Source: Leisingera sp. NJS204 (GTDB lineage: Bacteria > Pseudomonadota > Alphaproteobacteria > Rhodobacterales > Rhodobacteraceae). Taken from it: 64,000 nt of DNA. The stretch spans positions 1 to 64,000 of the forward strand of contig NZ_CP035422.1 of assembly GCF_004123675.1 (NCBI RefSeq). The letters run 5' to 3'. Below, piece after piece: positions 8,466 through 43,629 of the stretch; position 1 is the stretch's first letter; every line of letters starts with the position of its first letter. Position numbers and translations under genes: made by a program. The notes under the pieces were generated by a model. That model was not told the DNA's origin and ran no database searches. It saw only the letters and a program-made list of their open reading frames with translations.

Positions 8466-8475
8466 CGGCCCGTAG

Positions 8476-8507
8476 CGGACCTTCACATATCGAGTCGCGA
8501 AGGTCCG
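8476..8507 (+). terminator. Inverted repeat after virB6
   Basis: Nine-base perfect arms CGGACCTTC (8476-8484) and GAAGGTCCG (8499-8507) surround a 14-base loop, 10 bases after the virB6 stop. There is no strong T-run, so it may be a weak or factor-assisted terminator for the virB operon or only a processing hairpin. Confidence 0.45.
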
Positions 8508-8538
8508 GTTCCGGGGTGTTACTAACATGAAGGAGTGC

Positions 8539-8556
8539 GCAACGGAAAGCCGTTGC
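8539..8556 (-). terminator. Hairpin after the mercury operon
   Basis: A perfect hairpin with arms GCAACGG (8539-8545) and CCGTTGC (8550-8556) and a four-base loop lies just past the stop of the minus-strand oxidoreductase gene. Together with the hairpin at 8476-8507 it separates two convergent transcription units. There is no T-tract on the minus strand, so terminator function is inferred from position. Confidence 0.4.
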
Positions 8557-8560
8557 ACCA

Positions 8561-9907
8561 TCAGAACATTGACCCCAAGTCAGAAGCCCCTGTCGGGTAA
8601 GCGGCAGGCATCGCTTTCACCTGCGCCGCCGTCAGCCCCAGCTTGATCGCCAGCGAGAAGACGTTGATCAGCTCGGCATACTCCGGGCCGAACATGTGGG
8701 CTCCGAGGATCTTGCCATCCTTGCCGGTGATAATCTTCGCACCGGCATGTGTTTCACCGATGCGCTTCTGCGAGAACCAGCCCGAGGTGTCGGTGAAGCT
8801 CACCTCCACATCACCCACCTCTCGCGCCTCTTCCTCGAGCAACCCGACCCGCGCCAGCTCGGGTATGGTGAACACCACGCTCGGCACTCCAGTGTAGTCG
8901 GGTTCAGTCCGCTTGCCCTTCAGCATGTTGGAGGCGGCGATCTTACCTTCGAACACAGCTACCGGGGTCAGCGGCTTTCCTGGCGAGGCGGCAGCGTCTC
9001 CGGCCGCATAGATGCGTGGGTTCGACGGAGATTGCAGCCAAGGCATGACCTTCACGCCACCGTGCTCGGTTTCGATATCGGCAGCCGCAAGGTCAAGATG
9101 GTCGATGGCAGGCACCCTACCTGCACCGTGAACGACGAGATCGGCTTCGATGGAATGGCTCTGACCGGCCCTGCGGTAGAGCACCCGGCGCGCCCCATTC
9201 GCGTCCTCGATCCGTTCCATTTCGGCCTCGGCCGCGATCTTAATCCCGGCTTCGCGGCTCCGTTCGAGCAACATCTTTACGAGTTCGGGGTCAAACATCT
9301 TCAACTGGCGTGCGCCGCGGTCGAGGATTGTCACCTCAGCTCCCGCCAGCGCGGCGATATGGGCGAATTCGAAGGAGATGTAGCCGCCACCGACAAAGGC
9401 GATCCGGCGCGGCAGTTCGGCGAGGTTCAGGAAATCGGTGCTGTCGATCAGTCGCTCGGCACCGGGAAATTTCAGCGGCCTCGGCTTTGCGCCCGTAGCA
9501 ATCAGTGCGCGGCGAAAGGCGATCTCGCCGTAGCCGTCGATCTCGATCCGGTCCTCGGCGGTGAAGCGCGCGCGGCCATGTAGCGTTTTCACCCCGGCCT
9601 CTGTCAGCGCACTTTCCATGCTCTCGGGCACCGGGTCGGTGAAGCTCTCCTTGTGCTTCATCAGCGTGGGCCAATCGATCCTGGTCTCTCCTGCGACGCC
9701 CTTGCCTTCGAGCAGCCGCACGGCCTCCACCGCCTCGGCGCCGGCGCGCAGCATCTTCTTCGGGTCGCAGCCCCGGAGTGCGCAGGTGCCGCCATAAGGC
9801 AGCTCGTCGACGATGGCGACGGACCAACCCGCCTGGCTGCATTTTTTCGCGGCGTTGATCCCGGCCATGCCGGCGCCGATGACGATCAGGTCGAGTGTCT
9901 CGGTCAT
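8561..9907 (-). CDS. FAD-dependent pyridine nucleotide-disulfide oxidoreductase
   Basis: A 448-residue enzyme of the glutathione reductase/dihydrolipoyl dehydrogenase/MerA superfamily. The N-terminal FAD-binding motif is VIGAGMAGINAAKKC. The redox-active pair is in GGTCALRGCDPKK (CX4C), the NAD(P)H-binding motif is AFVGGGYISFEFAHIAA, and a second FAD motif is IYAAGDAAAS. It lacks an HMA domain and the C-terminal vicinal cysteines of mercuric reductase, so it is not a second canonical MerA. It has a good Shine-Dalgarno (GAGGAG) before ATG 9907 and ends the mer-side operon. Likely roles are a disulfide or thiol-metal reductase co-expressed with mercury resistance; the substrate is unknown. Confidence 0.85.
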   Translation of the reverse strand: MTETLDLIVIGAGMAGINAAKKCSQAGWSVAIVDELPYGGTCALRGCDPKKMLRAGAEAVEAVRLLEGKGVAGETRIDWPTLMKHKESFTDPVPESMESALTEAGVKTLHGRARFTAEDRIEIDGYGEIAFRRALIATGAKPRPLKFPGAERLIDSTDFLNLAELPRRIAFVGGGYISFEFAHIAALAGAEVTILDRGARQLKMFDPELVKMLLERSREAGIKIAAEAEMERIEDANGARRVLYRRAGQSHSIEADLVVHGAGRVPAIDHLDLAAADIETEHGGVKVMPWLQSPSNPRIYAAGDAAASPGKPLTPVAVFEGKIAASNMLKGKRTEPDYTGVPSVVFTIPELARVGLLEEEAREVGDVEVSFTDTSGWFSQKRIGETHAGAKIITGKDGKILGAHMFGPEYAELINVFSLAIKLGLTAAQVKAMPAAYPTGASDLGSMF

Positions 9908-10319: not shown

Positions 10320-11732
10320 TCACCCAGCGCAGCAACTGAGAGCGGCCACGTCCTTCTCGAAGGTCTGGGCCGCAAGCTTCAGCCCTTCCACTGTCGTGAG
10401 ATAGGGCATGATGGTATCGCCCAACTCCTCGTAGGTGAGCCCGGCTTTCAGCGCCATCGCTGCGGTCTGGATGCTGTCTGCGCCCTCGGGGGCGAGGATC
10501 TGCGCCCCCAGCAGGCGTTTGCTGCCTGCCTCGGCCACCAGCTTGATCAGACCGCGCGTGTCGCGGGCGGCAAGCGCGCGGGGGACTGCGTCGAGCGGCA
10601 GGACCGAGGTGAGGACCTCGTGTCCAGCGGCGCGGGCCTGTGCCTCGCTCAGTCCCACGCCCGCCACCTGCGGATCGGAGAACACGACCCAGGGCATCGT
10701 GCTGTTGTCGTAGCTGCGTGCCTCTCCCGCCACCGCGTTCCGGGCGGCGAGCTTGGCGCCGTAGGCCGCCATATAGACGAACTGGTTGCGCCCTGTGACA
10801 TCGCCAGCGGCCCAGACGTTCGAGTTGGTGGTGCGCATCTGCGCGTCCACCACGATGCCGCCGCGCGCGCCGGTCACGATCCCGGCCGCGCCGAGGTTCA
10901 AGCCATCACTGTTCGGCACCCGCCCGGTGGCAAGCACCAGTCGCTCGGCGATGAAGTTCTCACCCCCGTTACCGGTCAAACGTAGGCCGTCGCCGTCGCG
11001 CACCACGCTCTCGTAGCCGGCGACCCGCGCCAAGCGAATACCCTCGGAAGCGAGGTAGCCCTCCAGTGCTTCGGAAATCTCGGGTTCGGCCTCGGGCAGC
11101 ACACCGCGGCGGCTGACCAGCGTCACCGCGACACCGGCACGGGCGAAGAGCTGCGCAAACTCCACGCCGATATAGCCCGCACCGAGGACCAGCATTGAGG
11201 CGGGTAGAACGGTGAGTTCCAGCGCCGACGTGCTGTCGAGGGCGCCGATATCCTGAATGCCGGGGATCGCGGGCGCGTGGGGACGCGATCCGGTGGCGAT
11301 AACGATCTTCGCTGCCGGGAACGCCGCGTCGTCTACGGTAAGACTGCCTTTGCCGTCGAACCGGGCGCGACCTTCGATGTAGTCCACGTTCTCGTGCCGA
11401 GGCAGCACGTCGGCGTATTTTGCCGCGCGCAACTCCTCAACGAGCGCCTGCTTTTGCGCAACCGTCGCAGTCCAATCAGTCACGCTGGCTTCGGCACTGA
11501 TGCCGTCAAACCGATTGGCGGCGCGGGCGTGGTGAAGGCCCTCCACGGCGCGGATCAGGGCCTTGGAGGGCACGCAGCCCACGTTCACGCAGGTCCCGCC
11601 AATCGTCCCATCGCCGATCAGCGCGACTCGAGCCCCGGCTTCGGCGGCGGTAATGGCGGCCGAAAATCCGGCCGAACCAGCGCCGATCACAGCGAGATCG
11701 TAACCGCCCTTGGGAGTGCAGCAATCTTTCAT
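10320..11732 (-). CDS. merA: Mercuric reductase MerA
   Basis: A 470-residue flavoprotein reducing Hg(II) to volatile Hg(0) with NADPH. It shows the FAD motif VIGAGSAGFSAAITAAEAGA, the redox pair GGTCVNVGCVPSKALIR, the NADPH motif LVLGAGYIGVEFAQLFARAG, VWAAGDVTG, and the diagnostic C-terminal vicinal cysteines (AALSCCAG) that receive Hg(II). It lacks the N-terminal HMA domain of Tn501-type MerA; instead the extreme N-terminus has a vicinal pair (MKDCCTPKGG). It lies downstream of merT-merP-merF in the operon controlled by the divergent merR. Confidence 0.96.
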   Translation of the reverse strand: MKDCCTPKGGYDLAVIGAGSAGFSAAITAAEAGARVALIGDGTIGGTCVNVGCVPSKALIRAVEGLHHARAANRFDGISAEASVTDWTATVAQKQALVEELRAAKYADVLPRHENVDYIEGRARFDGKGSLTVDDAAFPAAKIVIATGSRPHAPAIPGIQDIGALDSTSALELTVLPASMLVLGAGYIGVEFAQLFARAGVAVTLVSRRGVLPEAEPEISEALEGYLASEGIRLARVAGYESVVRDGDGLRLTGNGGENFIAERLVLATGRVPNSDGLNLGAAGIVTGARGGIVVDAQMRTTNSNVWAAGDVTGRNQFVYMAAYGAKLAARNAVAGEARSYDNSTMPWVVFSDPQVAGVGLSEAQARAAGHEVLTSVLPLDAVPRALAARDTRGLIKLVAEAGSKRLLGAQILAPEGADSIQTAAMALKAGLTYEELGDTIMPYLTTVEGLKLAAQTFEKDVAALSCCAG

Positions 11733-11744
11733 ATCATTCTCTCT

Positions 11745-11972
11745 TCAATTCGTGCGTTGGCGCCGCCAGAGCGCAAAAATGGTGATGCCGATGAACACTG
11801 CCAGCGCCGGCAGGAGCACGAAGTCGAGCCAGCCCAGCATGGCCGAGAGCCCGACCGCGCCCAGCAGGACCACAAGGACCGGGGTGAAGCAGCACAGCGC
11901 CACCAGGACGGTGCCGATCAGCCCGTATTTCAGCATGCGGTCGTCCTTGGGGTTTGTCTCGCGCTCGCTCAC
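11745..11972 (-). CDS. merF: MerF mercury uptake protein
   Basis: A 75-residue membrane protein with two transmembrane helices (about residues 17-40 and 45-67). The vicinal cysteine pair sits in the first helix (LVALCCFTPVLVVLLGAVGL), matching MerF, which carries Hg(II) across the inner membrane to MerA. Length is slightly below the usual 81 residues. It overlaps the merP stop by four bases and precedes merA by 12 bases. Confidence 0.92.
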   Translation of the reverse strand: MSERETNPKDDRMLKYGLIGTVLVALCCFTPVLVVLLGAVGLSAMLGWLDFVLLPALAVFIGITIFALWRRQRTN

Positions 11973-12265
11973 GAGACGTCTTCCTGGGCCACTGTTGCTC
12001 CATAGCCCACTCCGGTGACGGCGGCGATCAGCTGGTCCGGGTCGGTGGCGAGATCGTCATAGTGCAGGACGTAAACGCCATCCTCGGCCTCGCCCTCGAG
12101 GAATTCCGCGATCTCCACAGTCTCCACGCGCTTGAGCGCAGTGGCGACGATATAGCTGCACGAGGGGCAGGTCAGACCAGTGACGTGCAGGCGGGTCTCG
12201 GCTTCGGCTGCAAAGATCGCGGTCGGCGAGATCCAGAGGATGGCAGCGAGTAACACTTGTCTCAT
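11969..12265 (-). CDS. merP: MerP periplasmic mercury-binding protein
   Basis: A 98-residue exported HMA-domain protein. The start is ATG 12265 (MRQVLLAAILW); a longer upstream frame overlaps merT and is not used. A signal peptide ends near IFAAEA. The metal site is GLTCPSCSYIV (CX2C), a variant of the usual GMTCxxC. MerP scavenges Hg(II) in the periplasm and passes it to MerT/MerF. The C-terminal half is more acidic than Tn501 MerP. It is 14 bases downstream of merT. Confidence 0.92.
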   Translation of the reverse strand: MRQVLLAAILWISPTAIFAAEAETRLHVTGLTCPSCSYIVATALKRVETVEIAEFLEGEAEDGVYVLHYDDLATDPDQLIAAVTGVGYGATVAQEDVS

Positions 12266-12279
12266 GATGGGCTCCGATA

Positions 12280-12678
12280 TCAGAAGGTTAGGATGCGCGG
12301 CGCGACATAGGGAAAGACCAAGGCCAGCAGCACCACGGCCAGCGCACCCCAAAGCAGTCCGCGCATCAGGCCGCGATCCACCGGGCGCGCGCAGACCCCG
12401 GTGCCACAGTCCTCGGCAGACACAGGTCGGTAAGCCTTCCAGAATCCATAGCCGAGCGCCGCCAAGGCGAAGGAGAGGGTTATCCACTTGTAGGAGTAGA
12501 GCGCTGTAAGTTGGCCGATGAAGACCCCGGTGACGCCAAGGCTAACCAGGACCAGCGGCAGGATGCAGCAGGAGGTCATCGCCAGCGCCCCGAGCACCCC
12601 GGCGCCAGTGGCGGTCCATCCGGTCCTGTCGGGGCTGTCGCCCTCCCAACGTTCGGTATCGTTCGTCTCGATCGTCAT
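12280..12678 (-). CDS. merT: MerT mercury transport protein
   Basis: A 132-residue inner-membrane transporter. The start is taken at ATG 12678 (MTIETND) with RBS GGGTGA; the longer frame from 12753 would run through the mer promoter. Three hydrophobic segments are visible, with vicinal cysteines in the first (AMTSCCILPLVLVSLGVTG) and the cytoplasmic-loop pair ECGxGxC-like DCGTGVCA, the known Hg(II) relay sites of MerT. It is the first gene of the mer operon. Confidence 0.94.
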   Translation of the reverse strand: MTIETNDTERWEGDSPDRTGWTATGAGVLGALAMTSCCILPLVLVSLGVTGVFIGQLTALYSYKWITLSFALAALGYGFWKAYRPVSAEDCGTGVCARPVDRGLMRGLLWGALAVVLLALVFPYVAPRILTF

Positions 12679-12709
12679 CGTGTCACCCTGTTGTCGTTCG
12701 ATGACTGAC

Positions 12710-12740
12710 AAGATAGGGTCTGTAGCAGCTACAGGATCAA
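12710..12740 (-). promoter_or_regulatory. merT promoter with MerR operator (19-bp spacer)
   Basis: On the minus strand a -35 TTGATC (12740-12735) and -10 TATCTT (12715-12710) are separated by 19 bp, the overlong spacer that MerR proteins correct by DNA untwisting. The spacer contains the perfect 7-1-7 dyad CTGTAGC-A-GCTACAG (12720-12734), a mer-type operator. It lies between divergent merR and merT. Confidence 0.88.
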
Positions 12741-12751
12741 GGAGAAATTTC

Positions 12752-13186
12752 ATGTCGGCTGATCACGCCCCCGCGAGCGAGCTCAAACGCTCCGATCTGG
12801 CCAGGCTGACCGGCTGCAACCTCGAGACGATCCGTTATTACGAAAATGTCGGCCTGGTGCCTGATCCGCCACGCACCGCATCGGGCCATCGCCGCTACAG
12901 CACGGCACATGTGGAGCGGCTGAACTTCGTGATGCGCGCGCGGGACCTTGGCTTTACTATGGAAGAGATCCGCGGGCTGCTATCTCTCGTCGATCGCGGC
13001 AGCCACACTTGTGCCGAGGTCGAGCGGATGGGGCGCCACCATCTCGAGGTAGTGCGCGACAAGATCCGCGATCTCCAAGTGATCGAGACCGTGCTCGCTC
13101 AGACAATCGCACGCTGCACCGGCTCGGACACACCAGATTGCCCCCTGCTCGACGTCCTTAGTGCGGGACAGACCAAGTCAGAGTAA
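12752..13186 (+). CDS. merR: MerR mercury-responsive activator/repressor
   Basis: A 144-residue MerR regulator starting at ATG 12752, with RBS AAGGAG immediately upstream. The winged helix-turn-helix includes LARLTGCNLETIRYYENVGL and SGHRRYS. A long dimerisation helix follows. Three cysteines at the Hg(II)-binding positions are present: SHTCAEV before the helix, then ARCTGSDTPDCPLLDV after it. It represses and, with Hg(II), activates the divergent merTPFA promoter at 12710-12740. It ends 93 bases before the convergent virD4 gene. Confidence 0.95.
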   Translation: MSADHAPASELKRSDLARLTGCNLETIRYYENVGLVPDPPRTASGHRRYSTAHVERLNFVMRARDLGFTMEEIRGLLSLVDRGSHTCAEVERMGRHHLEVVRDKIRDLQVIETVLAQTIARCTGSDTPDCPLLDVLSAGQTKSE

Positions 13187-20442: not shown

Positions 20443-21358
20443 GTCTGGTCTCCAGTGTTCGGTTGCAAGGCCACCACGTGAGTGTGGGGGCATGGCCGAA
20501 TGTCTGGTTTCCGAATCTGCCCGGGTCAGGGACGGCGCAGCCGCCGGCTTGCCGGGCGCAAAAGTTTTCCGCGTGCAGCAACTGACACATGCGCGCCCTC
20601 ACGCACGGGACCGCCCCAAGCCACAGGCCCCGTCCTCGCCGAAAAGTTTTGCGATCCTTGACGCGGGCTGATTTGGGGGCCATCCGGAGGATATGCTTCC
20701 ACGCTCATGTGTGTGTGTTTTGACGGTAGGTTTGCCCGACACGAGCAGGCAAACGGCCCGACCGGACGCGGGAGACGGATGCAGCGGCGGGATCGTTTTG
20801 CCCCGCAAAACAGACCAGAGCGCAATCCGGCGGAGCGGCCAGGGAGAGACGTGCTCGCGAGGCGGGCAAACCGGGACGCCGGGTGCGACGCCGCGGTGAG
20901 GCCGCATGGCCGAATGCGCGACGGACCGAAGGGCCGTTCTCCCCTGCGACACGCGAAGCCGAGCTGGGGAGGCCGCAAGGCATAAGCCAAGGTTGATGTG
21001 CAGGCGACTACGCTGCAGAATACACGGATTACTTTTCGAAGCACTCCACGTGATGGGCCGGGAACGGACTGGCGGCTTCATGGCAATGAATGCAAATAAG
21101 GGGACATCCCTCGTTGCCATGGTTCGGTCCTCCCGAAATTCTACACCTAGGGAGCGACGCATTGGACTGCCCCTTTCACGGTAGACAAGCCCTGCCTCAT
21201 AAGGTGGGTTTGGATGGGTGACGCAGTTGTCTTGCTTTTGTCAGCTTGGTGACATTCGCGCCGTTGCGAGCATCAGTTTTGTGTCAACCGGCGACGAATT
21301 TACCTTCCCGAACACAACCAATGATTGCTATCATCTTCGCAGCTTACAGGGGGACTGG
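20443..21358. other. Non-coding junction region with hairpins
   Basis: No supported gene was found; overlapping frames on both strands are Arg-rich shadows. Perfect hairpins GTTTGCC/GGCAAAC (20730-20736 and 20748-20754) and GTTTTGC/GCAAAAC (20795-20801 and 20805-20811) are present, as are two similar AAAAGTTTT-centred words near 20557-20580 and 20638-20655. Base composition falls from very GC-rich to near-balanced after about 20990, marking the left edge of the defence cassette. No tRNA or obvious attachment repeat was seen. Confidence 0.5.
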
Positions 21359-23449
21359 ATGCGTCTAGGTAGTATATCCATTCGAAATTTTCGGCGCCTG
21401 AATGATGTGTCCGTTGATTTCGAAAGCAAGGAAACTGTTTTTGTTGGCCCGAACAACAGCGGCAAGACTTCTGCGACGGCTGCCATTCGAAGCTTTCTCG
21501 GGAACCGGGAATTCAAGATTCATGACTTCTCCATTCTCGCAATTGCCTCTATCGACGCATACGCTCCAAGGAACGAATCCAGCCTACCTCAAATAGAACT
21601 TGATCTCTGGTTTCACATCGATCCGGACTCAATTGCGTTCGGTCGGGTCTTTGCCCTGGCAACGAGCCTTTCCGCTGATTTCTCGGAAATCGGGATGCGC
21701 TGCTCGTTCGCTGCGGATGACGCAGCAGAACTCTGGAAGCATTACGATGCAGCTTTCCCGACAAAGGAAGACGGTACCCGCAAGCGCCCTTTGAGCTTCT
21801 TCCTTGGAATGGAAGGCAACTTGAAAAAGTATTTTGGCATCAAGGTGTCCTCGCTGGAAAAGCTGGAAGAGGAATTCGTGGCAACGGCACTCTCCGCGCA
21901 AGAAGGCAAGAAGATTGTCCATTCTCTGCTGCGCGTCGATTTCGTTGATGCCCAGCGAAATATTGACGACGAGAATGCCGCGAGGAGCAACAGACTGTCA
22001 GACGCCTTTGCGACGTATTACCGGAGAAACCTGGAGCAGGCGGAACTGGCCGAAGAAGCTGTAGCGATCATTGAACAGAATAATGAAAATCTGACTAGGC
22101 ACTACGACGAACGCTTCAGACCCCTGATGACAATGATCGGAGGTCTTGGCCTTCCCTCCGACAACGACCGCGCGATGAAGGTCGTTTCGACACTCAGTTC
22201 GGAGGTTGCGTTACGCGGTAACACCGAACTCTTCTACGTCGATGCCAGCACCAGCCATGAGCTACCCGAGGCCTATAACGGACTGGGTTTCAAGAACCTG
22301 GTGTTCATGGCCATTCAGGTCGATCATTTTTATCGGCAATGGCTCGCGACCGAAGACAACCGTCCGCTGTGCCAGATGATCTTTATCGAAGAACCGGAAG
22401 TGCATTTGCACGCTCAGGTCCAACAAACATTCATTCGCCAGATGTGGGACGTGCTCACCGCTGACGCACCAGAAGGCGAAAGCAAGCCCCAGCTCACAAT
22501 CACGACCCACTCGTCGCACATCCTGGATACCGTGGATTTCTCAAAAATCCGCTACTTCCGTCGGTGCCATATCAACGGTGAACAGGATGGAGTGACCTAT
22601 CAGGGAACGACCGTGCACAGCCTTCGCCAATTTCAACCTGAGCCACTTGAATTGGGCGGCGATATGATTGAACCAGAGGAATCACTTTCCTTTCTCAAAA
22701 AATATCTGAGACTTACGCATTGCGACTTGTTCTTCTCCGATGCTGCCATACTCGTTGAGGGGTCTGCGGAAAAACTGCTTTTGCCGCGCATGATTGACAT
22801 ATCGGCGCAGAATCTGAACAAAAAGTATCTGACCATTCTGGAGGTAGGTGGCGCTTATGGGATGCGCTTCGCCGGATTGTTGGAATTCCTCGAAATTCCC
22901 TATTTGGTCATCACCGATATCGACTCCGTTGATCCCGCGAGAAACCGGGCGAGTTGCGTCGCTACCCATCCGGGAGCCGTTTCGTCGAATGCGACTCTGG
23001 GGTATTTCTTTGGAGAGACGAGAGTCGCCGAACTCTCCGGCAACACCTTTGACGATTGTCTGCAAGCTGAAGGGATGCGTTTTGTCGCCTATCAAAAGCC
23101 AGTAGAAGTTAACCGTCAGGACAATGCTCAAACCTTCCACGGGCGAACCCTTGAAGAAGCCTTTGTCTTCGAAAACCTCGACCACTTCCATGCCGATGGA
23201 CTCAGTATCGGCATTGACTTGCCGGATGGTCGAGCCGAATTGCAAGAGGCCGTCTGGCGACGCATTAAAAGCGATACTTTCAAAAAAACAGAATTTGCTA
23301 TGGATGTCCTTGCCTTCGAAATACCGGCAGGCGGGGACGAAGAAGCGAATGCGGGAGAGAACCGGGACTGGAATGTTCCCCACTACATCGACGAAGGCCT
23401 AAAATGGCTGGAGACACGTCTCTCCCAAAACCTGGGAGCCGGCGAATGA
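21359..23449 (+). CDS. OLD-family ATPase/TOPRIM nuclease (GajA-like)
   Basis: A 696-residue protein with an N-terminal ABC-type ATPase and a C-terminal TOPRIM nuclease domain. The start is ATG 21359 with RBS AGGGGGA; an earlier in-frame start at 21218 adds 47 residues that do not fit the family, because RLGSISIRNFRRL is the normal beginning. Walker A is GPNNSGKT (about 30-37). The signature/Walker B region is MIFIEEPEVHLHAQVQ (about 340), then ITTHSSHILD. The TOPRIM acidic motif is AAILVEGSAEKLLLP (about 462-476) with ITDIDSVD downstream. It overlaps the helicase gene by ATGA. This two-gene layout matches Gabija, where GajA nicks phage DNA when nucleotides are depleted. Confidence 0.85.
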   Translation: MRLGSISIRNFRRLNDVSVDFESKETVFVGPNNSGKTSATAAIRSFLGNREFKIHDFSILAIASIDAYAPRNESSLPQIELDLWFHIDPDSIAFGRVFALATSLSADFSEIGMRCSFAADDAAELWKHYDAAFPTKEDGTRKRPLSFFLGMEGNLKKYFGIKVSSLEKLEEEFVATALSAQEGKKIVHSLLRVDFVDAQRNIDDENAARSNRLSDAFATYYRRNLEQAELAEEAVAIIEQNNENLTRHYDERFRPLMTMIGGLGLPSDNDRAMKVVSTLSSEVALRGNTELFYVDASTSHELPEAYNGLGFKNLVFMAIQVDHFYRQWLATEDNRPLCQMIFIEEPEVHLHAQVQQTFIRQMWDVLTADAPEGESKPQLTITTHSSHILDTVDFSKIRYFRRCHINGEQDGVTYQGTTVHSLRQFQPEPLELGGDMIEPEESLSFLKKYLRLTHCDLFFSDAAILVEGSAEKLLLPRMIDISAQNLNKKYLTILEVGGAYGMRFAGLLEFLEIPYLVITDIDSVDPARNRASCVATHPGAVSSNATLGYFFGETRVAELSGNTFDDCLQAEGMRFVAYQKPVEVNRQDNAQTFHGRTLEEAFVFENLDHFHADGLSIGIDLPDGRAELQEAVWRRIKSDTFKKTEFAMDVLAFEIPAGGDEEANAGENRDWNVPHYIDEGLKWLETRLSQNLGAGE

Positions 23450-25290
23450 CGGCAGAACTCAAGCCAACTGAGGCCGATAAGAAAATTGCTGAGTGCATCG
23501 CCAAGGACGTTTCATTTTCGGTTATCGCAGGCGCTGGTTCAGGCAAAACCACATCGCTCGTTGAAGCTCTGAAAGGAATCCAGAGGTCCCGTGGAAACGA
23601 GCTTCGGAAAAACGGTCAGCGCGTGGTGTGTATCACATACACAAACCGTGCCGTTGGAGTGATTTCGTCGCGTCTAGGTTTCGATGACCTCTTTTACGTT
23701 TCCACTCTGCACGGGTTCCTTTGGGCGGAAATCGCGCGCTTCCAGGATGCTATTCGGGAGACCCTTCGTGATGCGATCGTCCCGCAACATATGGAAAAGG
23801 CCCGCGAGAAAGACAACGGGGGGACGTCTCAGGCCGCTCAAAAAGCGAGGAAAGACCTTGAGCGCCTGACTGCCCAACTTGCTGCGCTAAACGCGCATAA
23901 ACCGCCGATATGCTACGAAGAAACCGTTATCAGCGACTATTCCAAATGTGTCCTGAACCATGATGATGTTATTGACGTCGCGGCCTATCTAATCACGAAC
24001 AAACCACTCTTGCGCAAAGGCCTCGGGTTCAAATACCCCTACATCTTTGTCGATGAAGCTCAAGACACCTTCCCGCAGGTCGTCGAGGCGCTCAATGCTG
24101 TGTGCGCGGACGAAGGTTTACCAATCGTCGGATATTTCGGCGATCCGATGCAGCAGATTTACGATAAGCGTGCCGGAGGTTTTGCCGGTCCAAAAGGCTC
24201 CGAAAAGATTCCGAAGGAAGAGAATTTTCGAAGCTCAACCTCGGTGATCGACCTTCTCAACAACTTCAGAACCGATCTGAAGCAGGTTCCGGGTGGGAAG
24301 AACTCCGACGTTAAGGGCAGCGTCTTGATTACGATCGCGCAGGCTCCCGACCCTGCCGGTCCACGGAAAACCTATACCTCTGAACAACTCGATGAGGTAA
24401 CGGCGAAGTTCGAGGAAGCCGTTGAACAATGGGGATGGACCGATATTACTCCTGTAAAGAACCTTTTTCTGGCACGCCAGATGATCGCCCGGAGGCTCGG
24501 ATTCGTTACACTGCACAAGCTCTTTACAGGTGACTATTCGTCGTCCAGATCCCAATCCGACTATGAAGACGGCACGCACTATCTTCTCAAGCCCTTTGTG
24601 GACGGCATTTTTTCTTTGGTCGATGCATCCCGCAACAACTATCCTAAGAAGCTGATTGAAACACTCCGAAGAATAAGCCCTGCTTTTGACGACACTGGAG
24701 CGAACAAGAGCAAAACCCTCAAACAGATGCTCGAGGAAGCCTCAAAACACGCCGCTGCTTTGGCAGAAAAATGGGAAGGCAATACGGTCAAAGAAATTCT
24801 GGAATACTGTAGCGCGAACGCGCTTTATCCAATTTCGGACCGCCTTGCAGGTCAGTTGGCTCGCGCTCCCCGCCAAGCTTATGACTCCGGCAATGAGGAT
24901 CACCAAAGGGAAAAAGGAGATTGGCTGGCTGATGAATTCTTCAAGCTGAAGGCTGACGAACTCGAAAAGTACATCGAATTTCTGGATGAGAATTCTCCTT
25001 TCAGTACGCAGCACGGCTCGAAAGGCGAAGAGTATGAAAACGTGCTGGTCATGATCGACGATATCGAGGCAGCCTGGAATACCTACAGCTTTTCGAAAGT
25101 TCTGACCCCTGGTGTCGCGGGCAATCCGACCGACCGGCAGCAAGAACTTACTCAAAAGCTGGCTTATGTCTGTTTTTCACGGGCGGAAGTGAACCTTAGG
25201 ATTTTGATGTTTTCGAAAGCCGCGGAAGCGGCCAAAAAAGAACTGGTTGAGCGCGGTTTGTTCCAGGACAGCCAGGTTTCAATTTTATAG
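23446..25290 (+). CDS. UvrD-like helicase (GajB-like)
   Basis: A 614-residue superfamily 1 helicase starting at ATG 23446, in the ATGA overlap with the nuclease gene. Motif I is IAGAGSGKTTSL (about 27-38), motif Ia ITYTNRAVGVI, motif II FVDEAQD (about 200), motif III YFGDPMQQIYD, motif V QHGSKGEEYENVLVM (about 522), motif VI YVCFSRAEV (about 573). GajB partners sense DNA ends and stimulate GajA. The protein is longer than Bacillus GajB (494 residues), with additional sequence between motifs IV and V. About 67 bases separate it from the next cassette gene, in the same direction. Confidence 0.85.
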   Translation: MTAELKPTEADKKIAECIAKDVSFSVIAGAGSGKTTSLVEALKGIQRSRGNELRKNGQRVVCITYTNRAVGVISSRLGFDDLFYVSTLHGFLWAEIARFQDAIRETLRDAIVPQHMEKAREKDNGGTSQAAQKARKDLERLTAQLAALNAHKPPICYEETVISDYSKCVLNHDDVIDVAAYLITNKPLLRKGLGFKYPYIFVDEAQDTFPQVVEALNAVCADEGLPIVGYFGDPMQQIYDKRAGGFAGPKGSEKIPKEENFRSSTSVIDLLNNFRTDLKQVPGGKNSDVKGSVLITIAQAPDPAGPRKTYTSEQLDEVTAKFEEAVEQWGWTDITPVKNLFLARQMIARRLGFVTLHKLFTGDYSSSRSQSDYEDGTHYLLKPFVDGIFSLVDASRNNYPKKLIETLRRISPAFDDTGANKSKTLKQMLEEASKHAAALAEKWEGNTVKEILEYCSANALYPISDRLAGQLARAPRQAYDSGNEDHQREKGDWLADEFFKLKADELEKYIEFLDENSPFSTQHGSKGEEYENVLVMIDDIEAAWNTYSFSKVLTPGVAGNPTDRQQELTQKLAYVCFSRAEVNLRILMFSKAAEAAKKELVERGLFQDSQVSIL

Positions 25291-25357
25291 GTACCGGACA
25301 GATCCTTATGCAGATTCATTTTTTCACATCGATCGTTTTCAGGAAGATTTAAAATCT

Positions 25358-26536
25358 ATGCGTGTCCTCGTTTCAGCCGACATTCATCTCGGGTCGCCGA
25401 TTCGCTCGACCGCGATGCGCAATCCGGATCTGGGTGACCATCTGAAACAGGCAAGTCGGGACACGTTCATTCGCATTGTTGATCTGGCAATCTCGGAAAG
25501 TGTCGATGCACTGGTTCTCGCTGGCGACATCTTTGATAATGACCAACCAGACCTGAAGTCCCGGGCATTTCTGATCTCGCAATTGGCACGCGCCGCTGAC
25601 GCGGGTGTTCCCACAGTACTGATCCGTGGCAACCACGATGCCCTTCTCGATCACCGAGCCCACGGTAACCTGGGTCCGAATATTCATTTGCTGCACAAGA
25701 ACGAGCCCAGCGTGGAAATCGGTGGCGTGTGGTTCCACGGACTGTCTTTCGACACGGCGCATGTCTCAAAAAGCTTCCTGCCCGACTACCCGGCGCCGGT
25801 GGCTGGCCGGAAAAACGTCGGACTGATGCATACGTCGCTGGATGGCTCGCCAGGTCACGATCCCTATGCTCCCTGCTCCGAGCAGGATCTGCTGGCACAT
25901 GGCTATGACCTTTGGTGCCTCGGCCACATCCATGCCCCCTTTGAGCGCACATCAGGCCCAGTTCTCGCTGTCATGCCGGGCATTCCGCAACCACGCCACT
26001 TCGGAGAACTTACCGGCGGTACGGTCGCGATTGTCGAGCTTGATGATGACACTCCGAATATCGAACGGCATCGGGTTGGACATCTGAGATTCACCGAATG
26101 CGCTTTGGATCTCAGTAAATCTTCAGATGTTCAGGAAGTTTTGAGCGCGCTTCGGTGTGCACTCCAAGGGGTGCAGCATCCAGAACACCGCATAGCGGTG
26201 CGTCTGCAGGTGGCCACAGGCCACCATACTGCTGAGACACTGACGGCCCTTGCGAACGAATTGTTCGATGACATCGAGCGCGTGTTTATCGACAAAATCA
26301 AAGTGGTTGCCCCCAAACAACTGATCGACGCAAAGGCGGATGACCTAGTGCGCCTGATGCGGGCCGAGCTCACCGAACCGGGCTTCCAGCTGGCCACCAA
26401 AGAGATCCTCGAAGAACTCAGAAACGCAATGCCCCGTGAAATTGCCGACGAATTATCTGAAGACGCCTTGGATGACCTTTTGGAGGAGGCCGTTACTGAA
26501 GTTACGCTGTCTCTGCACTCAGGAGCCGCGGAATGA
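25358..26536 (+). CDS. Mre11/SbcD-like (YhaO-type) DNA exonuclease subunit
   Basis: A 392-residue calcineurin-like phosphoesterase. The start is ATG 25358 with AGGAAG upstream; the longer frame from 25247 overlaps the helicase gene. The metal-binding motifs are in order: LVSADIHLGSP, LAGDIFDND, LIRGNHDAL, LMHTSLDG and CLGHIHAPF. The last 120 residues (capping and C-terminal region) are helical and acidic, as in the YhaO family that partners with a Rad50-like ATPase. It overlaps the next gene by four bases. Known YhaO/SbcD partners process DNA ends; here the setting suggests antiphage defence or DNA repair linked to it. Confidence 0.88.
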   Translation: MRVLVSADIHLGSPIRSTAMRNPDLGDHLKQASRDTFIRIVDLAISESVDALVLAGDIFDNDQPDLKSRAFLISQLARAADAGVPTVLIRGNHDALLDHRAHGNLGPNIHLLHKNEPSVEIGGVWFHGLSFDTAHVSKSFLPDYPAPVAGRKNVGLMHTSLDGSPGHDPYAPCSEQDLLAHGYDLWCLGHIHAPFERTSGPVLAVMPGIPQPRHFGELTGGTVAIVELDDDTPNIERHRVGHLRFTECALDLSKSSDVQEVLSALRCALQGVQHPEHRIAVRLQVATGHHTAETLTALANELFDDIERVFIDKIKVVAPKQLIDAKADDLVRLMRAELTEPGFQLATKEILEELRNAMPREIADELSEDALDDLLEEAVTEVTLSLHSGAAE

Positions 26537-29500
26537 GACTGAACCGGCTTGATCTCATTCGCTATGGCCGTTTTGACGGCGCCGAGATCGTGCTCCCGGC
26601 ACCAGCCGAGGGCAAACCTGATGTCACCGTAATCTATGGACCGAATGAATCGGGAAAATCCACGGCCTTTAACGGGTTTCTGGAACTTCTCTTTGGTATG
26701 AAAGCAGGAACCCACCCGTACGCTTTCAGGTTTGAACGCAATGACCTTTTGGTCGGAGCGGAGCTGGGTATCCCCGGACGCGGGGTGACAGTTTTGCGCC
26801 GAAATGGCAAACGCACCCAGTCCCTGCTTGATCATCAGGACCGCCCGGTCGACGAAGCCATTCTTTCAAGTGCGCTCCATGGCCTTTCCATGGAGGGTTA
26901 TGTCGAAAGGTTCTCACTCAACGACGAAGGACTCCGCAAAGGCGGTGAACGGATTGCCGAGGCAAAAGGCGACCTGGGCCAGCTTCTGCATGCGGGTGTA
27001 TCAGGCCTGACCAGTATGGCGACGACACTGGAAGACATGACAGCCCGCGCCGAAAAGTTTCACAAGAAGAGCGGCCGAGGTACGGCGCTCAAAACCGGCA
27101 AAGACCACTTGAAAGAGATCCATCAGGCACTTCGAACGGAACGTCTCACGCCGGATCGGGAACGCACTCTTCGGAAAGACAGAGAGACCGCGCAAAAGGC
27201 TTTCGAACAGGCGGACACCGACCTCACGCGTGCCCGAAAACGGCAGGCAGCAGGAGCGGCGGCGCAGACCTGGTATGACAAATCGGAGGAAATTCGGAAA
27301 ATCGACGAATTTTCTGCCGATTTTCCGGAAGGTCCGAATTTGAAGAAGGGCACGGATGGGCAAGTCGCCACACTCGTGACAACCCTATCGGAGAAAGCAG
27401 AAAGTATCGCAGGCGCCGATGACAGAATTGCGCGCCATGAAGCGGTCATTTCAGAAAATGAGGCTGACCCGGCTGCCGGACATCTCGAAGCGGAACTCAC
27501 AGAGCTGGATCAAATCAGAATCGATGGGGCGTCCCTCACCTCCCGAGCGGACACGGCCAGATCGGATCTGGAAAAGCGCGCAGGTGAGCGCGATGACGCG
27601 GGCCGCCAGATAAAACAGATTCTGACAGCGTTGGCGGTAAGTGACGAGCCTGTAGAGGCCTTGGTCCTGACGACCGAAGAACTGGAGACACTCGCGGATG
27701 CGGTACAGGCCTGTCAAACCAGCGAGGGCGAGCTGCGAGCGGCTTCAAACGTGTTGAAGACCGCACGCGATCAGCTGGGGGATACTCCAACCGAACCAAA
27801 GGACTTGTCTCACCTGCAGATCGCGTTTGACGCATGGCAGAAAGTTTCGGACGTGTCAGGTCTTGAACATAACCTCGCATCGGAACTCGCCCGGCTAGCC
27901 AAAGCAGTTTCGGGTCTACCTGCTTCTTGGCAGACACTTATCGAGAACGGCCTGCCTGCACGTGAAAGTCTCGATGAAATCCTCAGGGAATGGAACACCC
28001 TGAATGCCAACATCGTTTCCGCCACAGAAGATTTGGAAGGTCGCGAAGCGGACTACAAGGCCGCGCGCGCAAAACGCGAAGCCGACGAAAGCGCGCCGGA
28101 TTCGATTGACGCTGCAGCGACGGAAGAAACCCGTCGTCAGCGTGACACAGCCTGGCAATCCCATCGTGGCAGTCTCTCCGACAAAACCGCGGAGCGTTTT
28201 GAGGAGGCCATGCATGCAGATGATGGCGCCCGAACGAGCTATCTGATGGGCACGGAGGCGCGCAAACAGCTTGCAAACTCGCGCGCACAGGAAAGCACCG
28301 CAAAAGCCGCACGTGACACGGCAAAAGACAAACTCGAAGCACTCACCGGAAAACACGAAGCTTTGACCAAGCGGGGCGGCTCACTCGCGACTGCCCTGGG
28401 CTTTCCCGTCGATACGGGGCCGGCTGCGTTTGCTGCTAGACTTACCAGCCTGACGGCGGCGGCTGAGATCGCAACTGAGGTCACTATTGCGGAGAATGCC
28501 TTTGAGGACCGCGCCAAGCGCCGCAAGGCAGCCTTTGACGAACTGCTGGCAGCAGCCCGCCTAGTCGCCCTTGAAGGTGAAGATAGTGACCTCCCTGAGC
28601 GGGTTGGCAAGGCTCTCACACTTCAGGAAAGTGTCCGTAAGACATGGGAGAACTGGCGTCGCGGGGAACGTAGCATTGCCGACTACCAGAAAGCTGTATC
28701 CCAAGCCGAGACAGATCATAAGGCAGCCTTGAACCGACTGGAAACGCTGACCTCGGCGCGACCTCTTCCTGATCGCTCGGCCACGGGCGTGAAAGCAGCG
28801 CTGCCGCACCTGCGCACGCTGCAACAGGTTCACAGTAATCACAGAAGCCTGGCGGGACGTGTTGAAGCCCTGGAACGCGCCGTTGCCACCCTGGCAAGGA
28901 GTGCCGCACGATTGGCGGAGATCCTGGAGGAGCCTTACAATCCGAAAGACGATCCACTTCCCATCATCAACCGCGCTCGTGCGCGTGTAACCAAAACCGC
29001 TGAGGCGGATCGTGTGAGAAAACGAGAAGAAGACCTTCTCGACAAGGAGGTCAAAGGCCGAAAGCGTGCGATAGTTGCCCGGGACGAAGCGCAAACCCAG
29101 CTGGAAAACTTGTTTGAAGGACAAGGTGGTGAGGATCTTTCGCCGACGGAGCGCGTGGGGATTCTAGCTGAACGCGACGAGTTGCGCGAAGACCGGGCCA
29201 ATGCGGACACGAGCCGCAATAAGGCGCGCGACGGCGTGGATCGTACGCTCTTTGACGAAGAGCTGACGCGATTGCCCGATGTAACGCGAGAAGCGGAACT
29301 GCAGCAAAAACTTGACGATGCGCAAACGGCACGGGATGCCGCTTTGAAGGAAATGAATGAAAAAGAACGCCTTTACGAGGAAGCTTTTCATGCCGCTGAC
29401 AACAGCGATCTGATCACCGAACAGGCCACGATCCTCGAAGAGTTACGAAACGGTGCAAGGCATGCGGCTGTCGCAAGGCTCGGGATATTGGCTGCGCGGG

Positions 29501-29937
29501 GTGCCTTAAAGCGCCTGGCTGCCGAACGAAGCAGCGCAATGCTGAAAGACGTGGAAGAAGCTTTTGTCACCATGACATCTAAGGAATGGGAAAAAGTCGT
29601 TGTCTGGAGTGAATCCGAGGGCGAAAAGCTGGTCGGCATCAAACCCGGCGGCGGCCCCGTGAAGGTCGAAAACATGTCCACTGGAACCATGGGCCAATTA
29701 TATTTTGCCCTGCGCCTGGCCGGTTACCGCAGCTTCGCGCGTGATCCGGGCCCCCTGCCCATGGTTCTCGACGATATTATGGAAACCTTCGACGATACCC
29801 GTGCATCTGCCGCATTGAATCTCTGTGCCGAGATCGGACGGAGCGGTCAGGCAATCATTTTCACGCACCATGCGCACCTGTTGGAGCTTGCACGCAAGAA
29901 CATTCCAGGAGTTTCCGTCGTGGAGATGCCGCATTAG
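26533..29937 (+). CDS. Rad50/SbcC-like (YhaN-type) AAA ATPase
   Basis: A 1134-residue SMC-like protein. The N-terminal lobe has RLDLIRYGRFDG and Walker A GPNESGKST (about 35-43). About 850 residues of coiled-coil rich in Ala, Glu and Arg follow, with a central non-helical break. The C-terminal lobe has the signature MSTGTMGQLYFALRLAGYRS and Walker B LPMVLDDIMETFDDTRA, ending with FTHHAHLLELA. This is the YhaN arrangement (signature STGTxxQ) rather than classical SbcC. It forms a two-subunit nuclease machine with the upstream YhaO-like gene. It is the last gene of the four-gene cassette. Confidence 0.88.
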   Translation: MRLNRLDLIRYGRFDGAEIVLPAPAEGKPDVTVIYGPNESGKSTAFNGFLELLFGMKAGTHPYAFRFERNDLLVGAELGIPGRGVTVLRRNGKRTQSLLDHQDRPVDEAILSSALHGLSMEGYVERFSLNDEGLRKGGERIAEAKGDLGQLLHAGVSGLTSMATTLEDMTARAEKFHKKSGRGTALKTGKDHLKEIHQALRTERLTPDRERTLRKDRETAQKAFEQADTDLTRARKRQAAGAAAQTWYDKSEEIRKIDEFSADFPEGPNLKKGTDGQVATLVTTLSEKAESIAGADDRIARHEAVISENEADPAAGHLEAELTELDQIRIDGASLTSRADTARSDLEKRAGERDDAGRQIKQILTALAVSDEPVEALVLTTEELETLADAVQACQTSEGELRAASNVLKTARDQLGDTPTEPKDLSHLQIAFDAWQKVSDVSGLEHNLASELARLAKAVSGLPASWQTLIENGLPARESLDEILREWNTLNANIVSATEDLEGREADYKAARAKREADESAPDSIDAAATEETRRQRDTAWQSHRGSLSDKTAERFEEAMHADDGARTSYLMGTEARKQLANSRAQESTAKAARDTAKDKLEALTGKHEALTKRGGSLATALGFPVDTGPAAFAARLTSLTAAAEIATEVTIAENAFEDRAKRRKAAFDELLAAARLVALEGEDSDLPERVGKALTLQESVRKTWENWRRGERSIADYQKAVSQAETDHKAALNRLETLTSARPLPDRSATGVKAALPHLRTLQQVHSNHRSLAGRVEALERAVATLARSAARLAEILEEPYNPKDDPLPIINRARARVTKTAEADRVRKREEDLLDKEVKGRKRAIVARDEAQTQLENLFEGQGGEDLSPTERVGILAERDELREDRANADTSRNKARDGVDRTLFDEELTRLPDVTREAELQQKLDDAQTARDAALKEMNEKERLYEEAFHAADNSDLITEQATILEELRNGARHAAVARLGILAARGALKRLAAERSSAMLKDVEEAFVTMTSKEWEKVVVWSESEGEKLVGIKPGGGPVKVENMSTGTMGQLYFALRLAGYRSFARDPGPLPMVLDDIMETFDDTRASAALNLCAEIGRSGQAIIFTHHAHLLELARKNIPGVSVVEMPH

Positions 29938-30096
29938 CATCCCGCTGTTCACTCTTTCACCTGAAGTTTGATGACTATGGAACAGCTCTTCAAAAAATAT
30001 GGACCGCTTTCGCGCGCTACCGGCGATACGCCTAAGGGACCGGTGGCCAAGGCGGCAAATCCGATCACAGCCTGAGCCAGGGGAGCGGCCTCGATT

Positions 30097-30633
30097 TTAC
30101 AGGGTGTTCCCAGGCCGCAGCGGCATGATTTCACGCTCGGGGCGCTTCAGGGCTTCGGCGTATTTGCGGGCGTTGTCGTCAATCGTGCCGTGCCAAAGCT
30201 TCGAGACGAACGCGCGGGCGTCTTGGACTTTCATGTCTTTCAGCGAAGAGGACAGCGCCATGAAAAGCTCATCCTCGCTGATCGCAGCGGCGCTGTGCAT
30301 GGCGCCAGCGTAAAATGACGGGTCGTTGAGAACCTGCTCGCTCAGCGGCATCCGCGCGAGGTTCTCTTCCGGGATCGCCATGAAAATCGTGTCCTGCAGG
30401 TCGGTCAGATACGCACGCCGCGATGTGGACACCGGCTTTCTCGCCGCCTTGTCCTCCAGATGTGCCTGCCTTGTCCTGTCGAGATTTGCCCTTGCATGGG
30501 TCATGATGACTTCACGCTTTCGGGCGGGTAGCGCGAATCCGGTGCAGCGCTCGATATGGGCGAGGAGATCTGCAACCTCTGCCTCAACATCAAAGTTGTC
30601 AAACCATGGAACCGTCCCTGATCTAGCCGCCAC
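30097..30633 (-). CDS. Hypothetical helical protein
   Basis: A 178-residue protein, preferred start GTG 30633 (GAGGGC upstream); a longer frame from 30747 would cross an AT-rich palindromic promoter region and the upstream terminator. The sequence is entirely helical and soluble, with repeated Leu/Ala heptads (FDNFDVEAEVADLLAHIERC, ALPARKREVIMTHARANL) and a conserved-looking TSRRAYLTDLQDTIFMAIPEEN centre. I do not recognise the family. It is a single gene between the defence cassette and the DUF736 block, on the plasmid-backbone strand. Confidence 0.6.
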   Translation of the reverse strand: MAARSGTVPWFDNFDVEAEVADLLAHIERCTGFALPARKREVIMTHARANLDRTRQAHLEDKAARKPVSTSRRAYLTDLQDTIFMAIPEENLARMPLSEQVLNDPSFYAGAMHSAAAISEDELFMALSSSLKDMKVQDARAFVSKLWHGTIDDNARKYAEALKRPEREIMPLRPGNTL

Positions 30634-41871: not shown

Positions 41872-42813
41872 TCAGGCGGCCTCGGCACTGCGCCCTGCCC
41901 TACCCGCCTCAGATTGTGCGATCAGATAGTCACAGGCGCGCTGCGCATCCGCGGCGTGCTTGAAGATCGCACCCTTGTCCGACCGAAGAACGCGCAACCA
42001 GTTGTGGAGGTAGGCGGCATTCATCTCGAGCGTATGCGCCGTGAAGCCGAGCGTCTGACCCAGGAACACCGAGGTCAATTCCGCGACGATCTCCTCGCGC
42101 GCATAGGACGTGTTGCCAAACTTCGAGAACCCGAAATCACGGTTCAGCCGATGCGGGGCTTTCGTGGCATGGGCCAGCTCATGGGCCCAGACCCCGTAGA
42201 AATTGCGCGGGTCCTGGAACCGCGTGATGGACGGCATGTAGACCTTGTCCACGGGCGGCAAATAGTACGCCTCCGTGCCCGTGAAGACGGTTGTGATGTC
42301 GATCGCATCAAAGAAGGTCTGCATGTGCGGGATGGGCTCGGACGGCGCATGCTCGGGCACGGGCTCCGGGTCGGGGAAGAAACTGTCGGGCAGGCCATCG
42401 ATTTGGCAGGCATTGAACACGCGGTAGGATTTCTGGAAGCGGAAGATGCGGGCTTCCTCGGAGTGATCATCCCCGTCGCTGCGGTCATGCTCATCTGCGC
42501 CCGCATCTTTCCGGCTTTGACCGTAATAAACGACGACAGAGGATTTTTCGCCCTTGCGGACCTTTGCGTCCAAGGCATTGGCTTGCGGCAGCGTCATCCA
42601 GAAAGGTGAGCTGTGGCCCGCCATCACGGTCCGCATCGTCAGCAGGAAGTTGTTCACTCCCTGGTAGGGTTCTCCGCCCACGCGCAGGGGACGAGAGCTG
42701 CCACCTGCGGTCCATGGCTTGCGCCACGGCAGGACGCCGCGCTCGATGATGCGGATGATTTCGTTTGTGATGACCTCGGAGGCATCGAATTTGGGCGTGC
42801 GGGATCGGGCCAT
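41872..42813 (-). CDS. ardC: ArdC-type antirestriction protein with zincin-like domain
   Basis: A 313-residue protein with RBS AAGGAGG. The N-terminal ssDNA-binding domain (DUF1738/ArdC-N) includes IIRIIERGVLPWRKPW and YQGVNNFLLTM, and TLPQANALDAKVRKGEKSSVVVYY-type residues. The C-terminal metallopeptidase-like domain has HELAH (in VWAHELAHATK, about residue 215) and EEIVAELTSVFLGQ providing the third ligand. ArdC protects incoming single-stranded plasmid DNA from restriction. An acidic insertion (DEHDRSDGDDHSEE) lies between the domains. Confidence 0.9.
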   Translation of the reverse strand: MARSRTPKFDASEVITNEIIRIIERGVLPWRKPWTAGGSSRPLRVGGEPYQGVNNFLLTMRTVMAGHSSPFWMTLPQANALDAKVRKGEKSSVVVYYGQSRKDAGADEHDRSDGDDHSEEARIFRFQKSYRVFNACQIDGLPDSFFPDPEPVPEHAPSEPIPHMQTFFDAIDITTVFTGTEAYYLPPVDKVYMPSITRFQDPRNFYGVWAHELAHATKAPHRLNRDFGFSKFGNTSYAREEIVAELTSVFLGQTLGFTAHTLEMNAAYLHNWLRVLRSDKGAIFKHAADAQRACDYLIAQSEAGRAGRSAEAA

Positions 42814-43513: not shown

Positions 43514-43629
43514 AGATCGGCAACCAAGATCGGCAACCAAGATCGGCAACGCATATCGGCAAAACCTTGCTTAAAAGTACAAAATGTGTTTATTTTTCAA
43601 TTACTTTGCAAACATGGAAGATCGGCAAA
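43514..43629 (+). repeat. Iterated ATCGGCAA repeats upstream of fic
   Basis: Three consecutive 13-base units AGATCGGCAACCA begin at 43514, 43527 and 43540 (the last incomplete). A fourth core copy ATCGGCAA lies at 43555-43562 and a fifth at 43621-43628, directly in front of the fic ATG at 43630. The 13-base period and the fifth copy at the start codon suggest operator sites for a DNA-binding protein. Confidence 0.75.

What the first reader, a model, noticed from the sequence alone, without database searches (positions are those of the whole stretch)
21359..29937. Gabija-like nuclease/helicase pair fused in one operon-like unit with a Mre11/Rad50-like (YhaO/YhaN) pair
Four plus-strand genes lie in a row with overlaps (ATGA at 23446, ATGA at 26533) and one 67-base gap. 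OLD/TOPRIM nuclease plus UvrD helicase is the Gabija layout, and YhaO/YhaN is a DNA-end processing pair. I do not know the four-gene arrangement as a described defence system. The segment has lower GC and longer A-rich runs than its flanks and is bounded by non-coding stretches, which suggests a cassette inserted into the plasmid backbone. It may be a compound antiphage system in which end-resection by the Mre11/Rad50-like pair feeds or limits the nuclease/helicase, or two independent systems parked together.
Basis: partly seen in the sequence, partly recalled or inferred. Interest (0 to 1): 0.82.

Follow-up and report, generated by a model that had tools for sequence, protein, structure and literature searches.

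The report
Gabija beside portable Mre11/Rad50-like nuclease pair
A marine bacterial plasmid carries a standard Gabija antivirus system followed directly by a DNA-end-cutting enzyme pair that, in related bacteria, often sits behind other antivirus systems, so it looks like a reusable plug-in rather than part of one four-gene machine.

Summary
The four genes are real and in the stated order. Genes 1-2 are an ordinary Gabija pair (670 and 544 bits). Genes 3-4 are a YhaO/YhaN-type Mre11/Rad50-like pair; the eight checked nuclease residues are invariant in 35 aligned rows and no YhaN has a CxxC hook. They lie in an 8.95-kb cassette (21065-30010) that a Stappia genome shares whole at 91% DNA identity in other surroundings. 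Here it fills a variable cargo slot of Roseobacter conjugative plasmids.

It is not an obligate four-gene system: of 18 strong GajA matches of this subfamily in 394 genomes, two (the same cassette) have YhaON beside them. YhaON also stands behind PDC-S06, PDC-S46, HerA-DUF4297 with Shango, an OLD-type ATPase, PD-T4-3, AbiE and other Gabija subfamilies: a defence gene is among the two nearest upstream ORFs in at least 19 of 31 close loci. In 11 of 14 compared pairs of islands the upstream DNA differs and homology restarts 0-110 bp before yhaO.

Best reading: YhaON is a portable end-processing nuclease module of defence islands beside a self-sufficient Gabija. Whether it defends, cleans up or protects self is untested.

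The parts
21065..30010 (+). mobile cassette carrying gajA-gajB-yhaO-yhaN
   Evidence: 91.0% DNA identity over 8946 bp to Stappia L011, no match to the window flanks there; Ochrobactrum L009 homology also begins at 21065; backbone homology of other plasmids stops at about 21058-21078 and resumes at about 30003-30104 in the rows listed
21359..23449 (+). gajA, OLD ABC-ATPase + TOPRIM nuclease (696 aa; alternative start 21218)
   Evidence: PADLOC GajA PDLC00093 E 1.9e-201; Pfam AAA_15 and OLD-like_TOPRIM
23446..25290 (+). gajB, UvrD-like helicase (614 aa)
   Evidence: PADLOC GajB PDLC00143 E 1.6e-163
25291..25357 (+). 67-bp junction between the two pairs; in related islands with different upstream DNA, homology restarts in the corresponding place just before yhaO
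25358..26536 (+). yhaO, Mre11/SbcD-like metallophosphoesterase nuclease (392 aa)
   Evidence: Pfam Metallophos; TIGR00619 62 bits (below cut-off 77.65); the 50 listed Foldseek PDB matches of the model are Mre11, Mre11-Rad50(-Nbs1) or SbcCD entries
26533..29937 (+). yhaN, Rad50-like ABC ATPase with long helical insert, no CxxC hook (1134 aa)
   Evidence: Pfam AAA_27 172 bits; checked ABC positions invariant or nearly so in 35 rows
29971..30010 (+). remnant start of a fifth small gene that is open over 202 aa in Stappia L011
   Evidence: sequence comparison

Best explanation
A self-sufficient Gabija pair followed by a YhaO/YhaN Mre11-Rad50-like pair, carried as one cassette in a plasmid cargo slot. 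Shown: gene identities, cassette limits, intact motifs, purifying selection, and that YhaON-type pairs recur directly downstream of several unrelated defence modules that differ between highly similar islands while YhaON stays. Inferred: GajA/GajB act on invading DNA as in studied Gabija systems; YhaN clamps DNA ends and YhaO cuts near them, acting on free, hairpin or protein-capped ends as SbcCD does. Because a preprint finds that Gabija attacks ends from which phage end-binding proteins have excluded RecBCD, I expect YhaON to work on the same class of ends, either degrading protein-capped invader DNA in parallel with Gabija and its other partners or processing the cell's own broken ends so that the partner nuclease spares them. 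It is a generic end-processing module, not a dedicated Gabija subunit.
For: Gabija identity. Mre11 fold and invariant residues. Upstream slot: at least 28 of 61 ORFs, in at least 19 of 31 close loci, match PADLOC at E<=1e-30, against about 6 of 57 downstream ORFs and about 9 of 60 upstream ORFs of the comparison set; Fisher p 3e-5 and 3e-4, 4e-5 and 7e-4 after moving a misplaced close locus, L129. Differing recognised modules at the yhaO border: PDC-S06 subtypes (L036|L023, L036|L018), PDC-S06 or Gabija (L036|L021, L021|L018), HerA-DUF4297 or OLD (L002|L019), PDC-S46 or other genes (L017|L003, L017|L002), AbiE or RmrA/Gabija island (L028|L007). L023 and L036 are sisters in the YhaON tree (0.994) with different PDC-S06 subtypes, Gabija-bearing L021 next to them. 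This GajA subfamily usually without YhaON. No sbcD match over the cut-off in the host (best is the plasmid YhaO, 62.5 bits, next 22 bits), addA present. Gabija and DNA ends: PMC12407980, abstract and passages.
Against: No experiment. In 12 of 31 loci I saw no PADLOC match in the two nearest upstream ORFs (not all of these were scanned one by one), several in apparently chromosomal surroundings, so YhaON can live without a defence neighbour; L030 and L031, which take part in three of the junction comparisons, are among them. Living in a defence island does not prove a defence role. ORF counts are not phylogenetically independent. The comparison set of distant YhaON also holds defence genes, while deep Rhodobacteraceae copies mostly sit among ORFs that look metabolic (L137-L149, judged by eye; L144 is an exception with HsdR/HsdM-like ORFs upstream), which fits an ordinary repair role. 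The preprint on Gabija and DNA ends mentions neither SbcCD nor Mre11 in its main text; that link is mine.
Confidence: 0.6

Rival explanations
1. One compound four-gene antiphage system in which YhaON resection feeds or limits GajAB.
For: Same strand, 67-bp gap, shared with Stappia as one 8.95-kb unit; a second Gabija subfamily is co-directional with YhaON in Roseibium L012; Gabija genes of further subfamilies lie near YhaON (L003, L015, L021, L028).
Against: 16 of 18 strong GajA matches of this subfamily have no YhaO (E<=1e-60) on their contig; YhaON has other partners; in L021 and L028 Gabija is on the opposite strand; GC differs between the pairs.
Confidence: 0.13
2. Plasmid-borne ordinary DNA repair: YhaON is a housekeeping-type MR complex supplying end processing to hosts without SbcCD; the defence neighbours reflect a shared cargo slot.
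For: No sbcD match over the cut-off in the host (SbcC itself was not searched); deep Rhodobacteraceae YhaON lies mostly among metabolic-looking ORFs; the cargo slot also holds mercury resistance and respiration genes.
Against: Defence genes are concentrated 5' of yhaO and not 3' of yhaN; the same link appears on unrelated backbones and in distant YhaON (BilD in L044, PDC-S37/Hhe in L134).
Confidence: 0.18
3. YhaON is a stand-alone anti-phage or anti-plasmid system (MR-type), with no functional tie to the neighbours.
For: Upstream neighbour differs in sister islands; patchy: close homologues (63% identity or more) in 11 of 394 family genomes, about one genome per genus; Lamassu shows that Rad50-like ATPases can be immune sensors (PMC10586767, passages).
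Against: No effector beyond the MR nuclease; 4-bp overlaps with PDC-S06 in L024, L026, L036 suggest coupling.
Confidence: 0.3

Closest known systems
Gabija (GajA/GajB)
   Same: Both genes, order and domains; nearly full-length matches to PADLOC GajA and GajB models
   Different: Only remotely like the solved GajA/GajB chains (GajA best stretch 413-523, E 1e-10; GajB E 1e-6); followed by YhaON
SbcCD / Mre11-Rad50
   Same: Mre11 fold with invariant metal-site residues; split ABC head with long helical insert
   Different: YhaO scores below the SbcD cut-off (62 against 77.65 bits); no CxxC hook in 35 of 35 YhaN rows
YhaO/YhaN of Bacillus and relatives
   Same: Gene order nuclease then AAA_27 ATPase (family naming recalled)
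   Different: Here on plasmids and in defence islands; one search found 7 papers with both words, by title and abstract start none a defence study
Lamassu (LmuA/B/C)
   Same: Rad50/SMC-like ATPase in immunity; P0004 matches LmuB weakly (55 bits)
   Different: No LmuA hit in the lists shown for the four proteins; a Mre11-type nuclease instead

Membership tests
Gabija | GajA: OLD ABC-ATPase plus TOPRIM | tested here: met
   Pfam AAA_15 and OLD-like_TOPRIM; PADLOC 670 bits over 1-691
Gabija | GajB UvrD-like helicase directly 3' | tested here: met
   PADLOC GajB 544 bits, 4-bp overlap
Gabija | Antiphage activity | not testable with these tools
   needs plaque assays
Mre11/SbcD | Mre11 fold with conserved metal-binding residues | tested here: met
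   D8, H10, D57, N92, H93, H158, H190, H192 invariant in 35 of 35 rows, near-duplicates included (choice of residues recalled); 50 of 50 listed PDB matches are Mre11/MR(N)/SbcCD entries
Mre11/SbcD | NCBIfam SbcD subfamily cut-off | tested here: not met
   62.2 against 77.65 bits
Rad50/SbcC | Walker A, signature, Walker B of a split ABC head | tested here: met
   GPNESGKST at 36-44, MSTGTMGQ from 1048, LDD at 1079-1081; 14 checked positions invariant in 35 of 35 except T44, 33 of 35
Rad50/SbcC | CxxC zinc hook | tested here: not met
   0 of 35 rows
Four-gene compound system | Conserved co-occurrence of the four families | tested here: not met
   2 of 18 strong GajA matches adjacent to YhaON, both the same cassette; YhaON has other partners
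Lamassu | LmuA effector and LmuB | tested here: not met
   no LmuA hit in the lists shown; LmuB 55 bits only

The most novel reading that the evidence does not exclude
YhaON is the constant core of a modular immune platform: a shared DNA-end sensor and nuclease coupled to exchangeable upstream effectors (Gabija, PrrC-like AAA_13 proteins, PDC-S46, HerA-DUF4297, OLD, PD-T4-3, Bil), many of them ABC-ATPases, which it activates or restrains at protein-capped invader ends.
Probability: 0.2. Interest if true: 0.87.

Novelty: new variant of a known kind. Interest (0 to 1): 0.58.

Why it matters
If YhaON is a general partner of defence modules, a little-studied Mre11/Rad50-like family becomes part of bacterial immunity, and the question of how Gabija-type nucleases tell self ends from foreign ends gets a genetic handle: sister islands that differ in the upstream module beside one constant pair form a ready-made comparison set.

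Tried and rejected
Fixed four-gene system: rejected as obligate and the partner list. Four of the 18 GajA places carry in-frame stops (G029, G241, G171, G279), so not all 18 are intact. Lamassu: rejected. Promoter/terminator scan: uninformative, 3 promoter-like sites against 3.8 expected and 8 terminator-like against 12.1. Viral contigs: 10 relatives; three over nearly the whole protein at 33-35% identity, best local match 43%; not pursued. Literature: searches showed, in the rows listed (lists were capped, e.g. 25 of 126, 15 of 42, 10 of 451, 8 of 36), no paper describing YhaON as a defence module; the library lacks most subscription journals. Papers opened: PMC12839542, PMC10586767 and PMC13386836 (passages by term search) and PMC12407980 (abstract, outline, passages); the rest were seen as listings. 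The comparison set did not give a clean negative, so the association is wider than the close clade. Low-identity junctions (window against L012-L014, 72-81%) were not counted, because non-coding DNA would hardly align at that distance. In one search, 3 of 14 pairs (L036|L024, L018|L023, L002|L005) share the same upstream module; 11 differ.

Counting rules and dropped rows: the slot is the two nearest ORFs of 150 aa or more on the 5' side, either strand (L033: one ORF). Left out as near-duplicates: L004, L006, L010, L016, L042. Left out for contig ends, gene-call trouble or decay: L034, L038, L039, L057; L041 as the 45% outgroup. Counted as negatives these last five would make 19 of 36. Of the 28 upstream ORFs, 19 were scanned one by one; 9 (L005, L011, L023, L026, L035, L036 and SngC of L019) rest on cluster membership and the pooled scan. 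One search lists only 25 of its 76 families, so 28 is a lower bound. About 6 of 57 and about 9 of 60 assume that same-named models hit the same protein, since searches give totals per model. The comparison set of 60 ORFs from 30 loci wrongly included one close locus, L129 (62% identity, no match for the one of its two ORFs reported singly); correcting this changes p little. Viral loci L090-L093 were left out of it.

A first idea that the three recombinases of pP13_c lie in the window was wrong and is corrected in Noticed in passing.

Full report
What is there. The four plus-strand genes are confirmed at the stated coordinates. GajA and GajB match PADLOC models over nearly their full length at 670 and 544 bits, so this is an ordinary Gabija pair of a subfamily far from the solved proteins. 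Gene 3 has the nuclease fold of Mre11: its AlphaFold model (mean pLDDT 81) finds Mre11, MR(N) or SbcCD entries in all 50 listed PDB matches. Gene 4 is a Rad50-like ABC ATPase of the AAA_27 family with a long helical insert; its model has pTM 0.29 and supports only the general layout. In a 35-row alignment (near-duplicates included) the eight checked YhaO residues are invariant, 13 of 14 checked YhaN positions invariant and T44 kept in 33, and no YhaN has a CxxC.

Cassette and site. DNA homology to a Stappia genome spans 21065-30010 at 91.0% and covers all four genes, with no match of the window flanks; an Ochrobactrum plasmid shares 21065-22153, giving the same left limit. In other Roseobacter conjugative plasmids the backbone stops and resumes about these limits. 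Seven records were looked at. Six show both sides of the slot with other cargo: an AAA ATPase, S8 peptidase with ATPase, TIR genes, a DEAD helicase, Abi with ATPase plus mercury resistance, and respiration genes; the seventh shows the left side with a methyltransferase. The 8.8 kb lies in 13 Phaeobacter/Leisingera plasmids at 99% or more. dN/dS against Stappia is 0.14, 0.13, 0.20 and 0.15 for the four genes.

Is it a four-gene system? In 394 genomes of the family, strong matches to this GajA subfamily (E below 1e-190) occur at 18 places, four of them with in-frame stops; only G000 and G231, which carry the same cassette, have YhaO next to them. YhaO homologues of 63% identity or more occur in 11 of 394. 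G063 (= L028) has another Gabija about 5 kb from YhaO. G241 and G318 have both genes on different contigs, and there YhaO has PDC-S06 (L024) or PDC-S37/Hhe (L134) in front of it.

Partners of YhaON. Within the two ORFs 5' of yhaO: Gabija of three subfamilies (window and L011; L012; L021), PDC-S06 AAA_13 proteins (L014, L018, L023, L024, L026, L035, L036), PDC-S46 (L017, L040), DUF4297-HerA behind Shango (L002, L005), an OLD/AriA-type ATPase behind Shango (L019), PD-T4-3 (L015), AbiE (L007), and RmrA with PDC-S24 and Gabija beyond it on the opposite strand (L028). That is at least 19 of 31 loci. In 12 loci none was seen (L003, L013, L020, L022, L025, L027, L029-L033, L037); of these L003 and L031 were scanned fully and L013, L020, L030 for one ORF, the rest only in the pool. 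Upstream ORFs: at least 28 of 61; downstream about 6 of 57; comparison set about 9 of 60; p 3e-5 and 3e-4, 4e-5 and 7e-4 with L129 moved to the close set. Distant pairs with defence neighbours: L044 (BilD) and L134 (PDC-S37/Hhe) by individual scan, and probably L131 (GajA/GajB, by gene appearance and the pooled hit).

Changed neighbours. Of 14 pairs of islands compared, three share the upstream module and eleven do not. In those eleven (88% identity or more 3' of yhaO) homology restarts at 0 bp (L036|L023, L036|L018), about 8 (L036|L021), 35 (L021|L018), 36 (L002|L019), 17 (L017|L003, L017|L002), 110 (L007|L031), 73 (L028|L031), 71 (L028|L007) and 3 bp (L030|L007) before yhaO. L030 and L031 have no recognised defence gene in the scanned neighbours. 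The FastTree tree places L023 and L036 as sisters (0.994) with different PDC-S06 subtypes (assigned by DNA homology to L018 and L024), and Gabija-bearing L021 next to them. The simplest history is recombination between islands that share YhaON but carry different upstream modules; no single partner is needed. Pairs within one group are not independent events.

Mechanism. A 2025 preprint (PMC12407980; abstract and passages) reports that Gabija targets DNA ends from which phage end-binding proteins exclude RecBCD, and that RecBCD protects self DNA; it does not mention SbcCD or Mre11. A Mre11-Rad50 complex acts on blocked ends and hairpins (Gut et al. 2022, seen only as a title in a reference list). 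Hence my inference that YhaON and Gabija meet at DNA ends. The host has AddA and no SbcD match over the cut-off; SbcC was not searched as such. Nothing here distinguishes defence, clean-up and self-protection.

Limits. PADLOC 2023 may miss or overcall systems; ORFs were called by a longest-ORF script; locus counts are biased by the pattern search that found them (80 kept of 96).

Noticed in passing
window about 42169-42175: Site where the near-identical plasmid pP13_c (NZ_CP010770.1) carries about 3.5 kb more, holding three tandem tyrosine recombinases (record 6408-9558); the window lacks it, and the 7 bp shared by both alignment ends could be a target duplication. Resembles a recombinase-in-trio element (name recalled).
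   Followed up: partly
window about 43600-48500: Fic-family gene and repABC replication genes by alignment to NZ_CP010770.1; GC falls to 0.51-0.56 at 45-49 kb.
   Followed up: no
window about 10320-13186: Mercury resistance genes (merA, merF, merT-like, regulator) in the conjugative backbone, by alignment to NZ_CP010770.1.
   Followed up: no
L011:14614-15222: A 202-aa putative membrane protein directly 3' of yhaN in Stappia, of which the window keeps only the first codons; possibly a lost fifth cassette gene.
   Followed up: partly
L039:738-1904: In-frame remnant joining the first half of YhaO to the end of YhaN: a decayed YhaON by internal deletion in Celeribacter.
   Followed up: no
L051:4012-10001: Two large genes (933 and 1064 aa), the first overlapping the second and the second overlapping yhaO by 4 bp, in a Planctomycetales contig, without PADLOC match at 1e-30: a possible unknown partner module.
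   Followed up: no
L002:13654-14316 and homologues in L005, L006, L016, L019: A conserved 220-221-aa protein lies 67-70 bp 3' of yhaN on the opposite strand; the L002 copy has no Pfam or PADLOC match.
   Followed up: no
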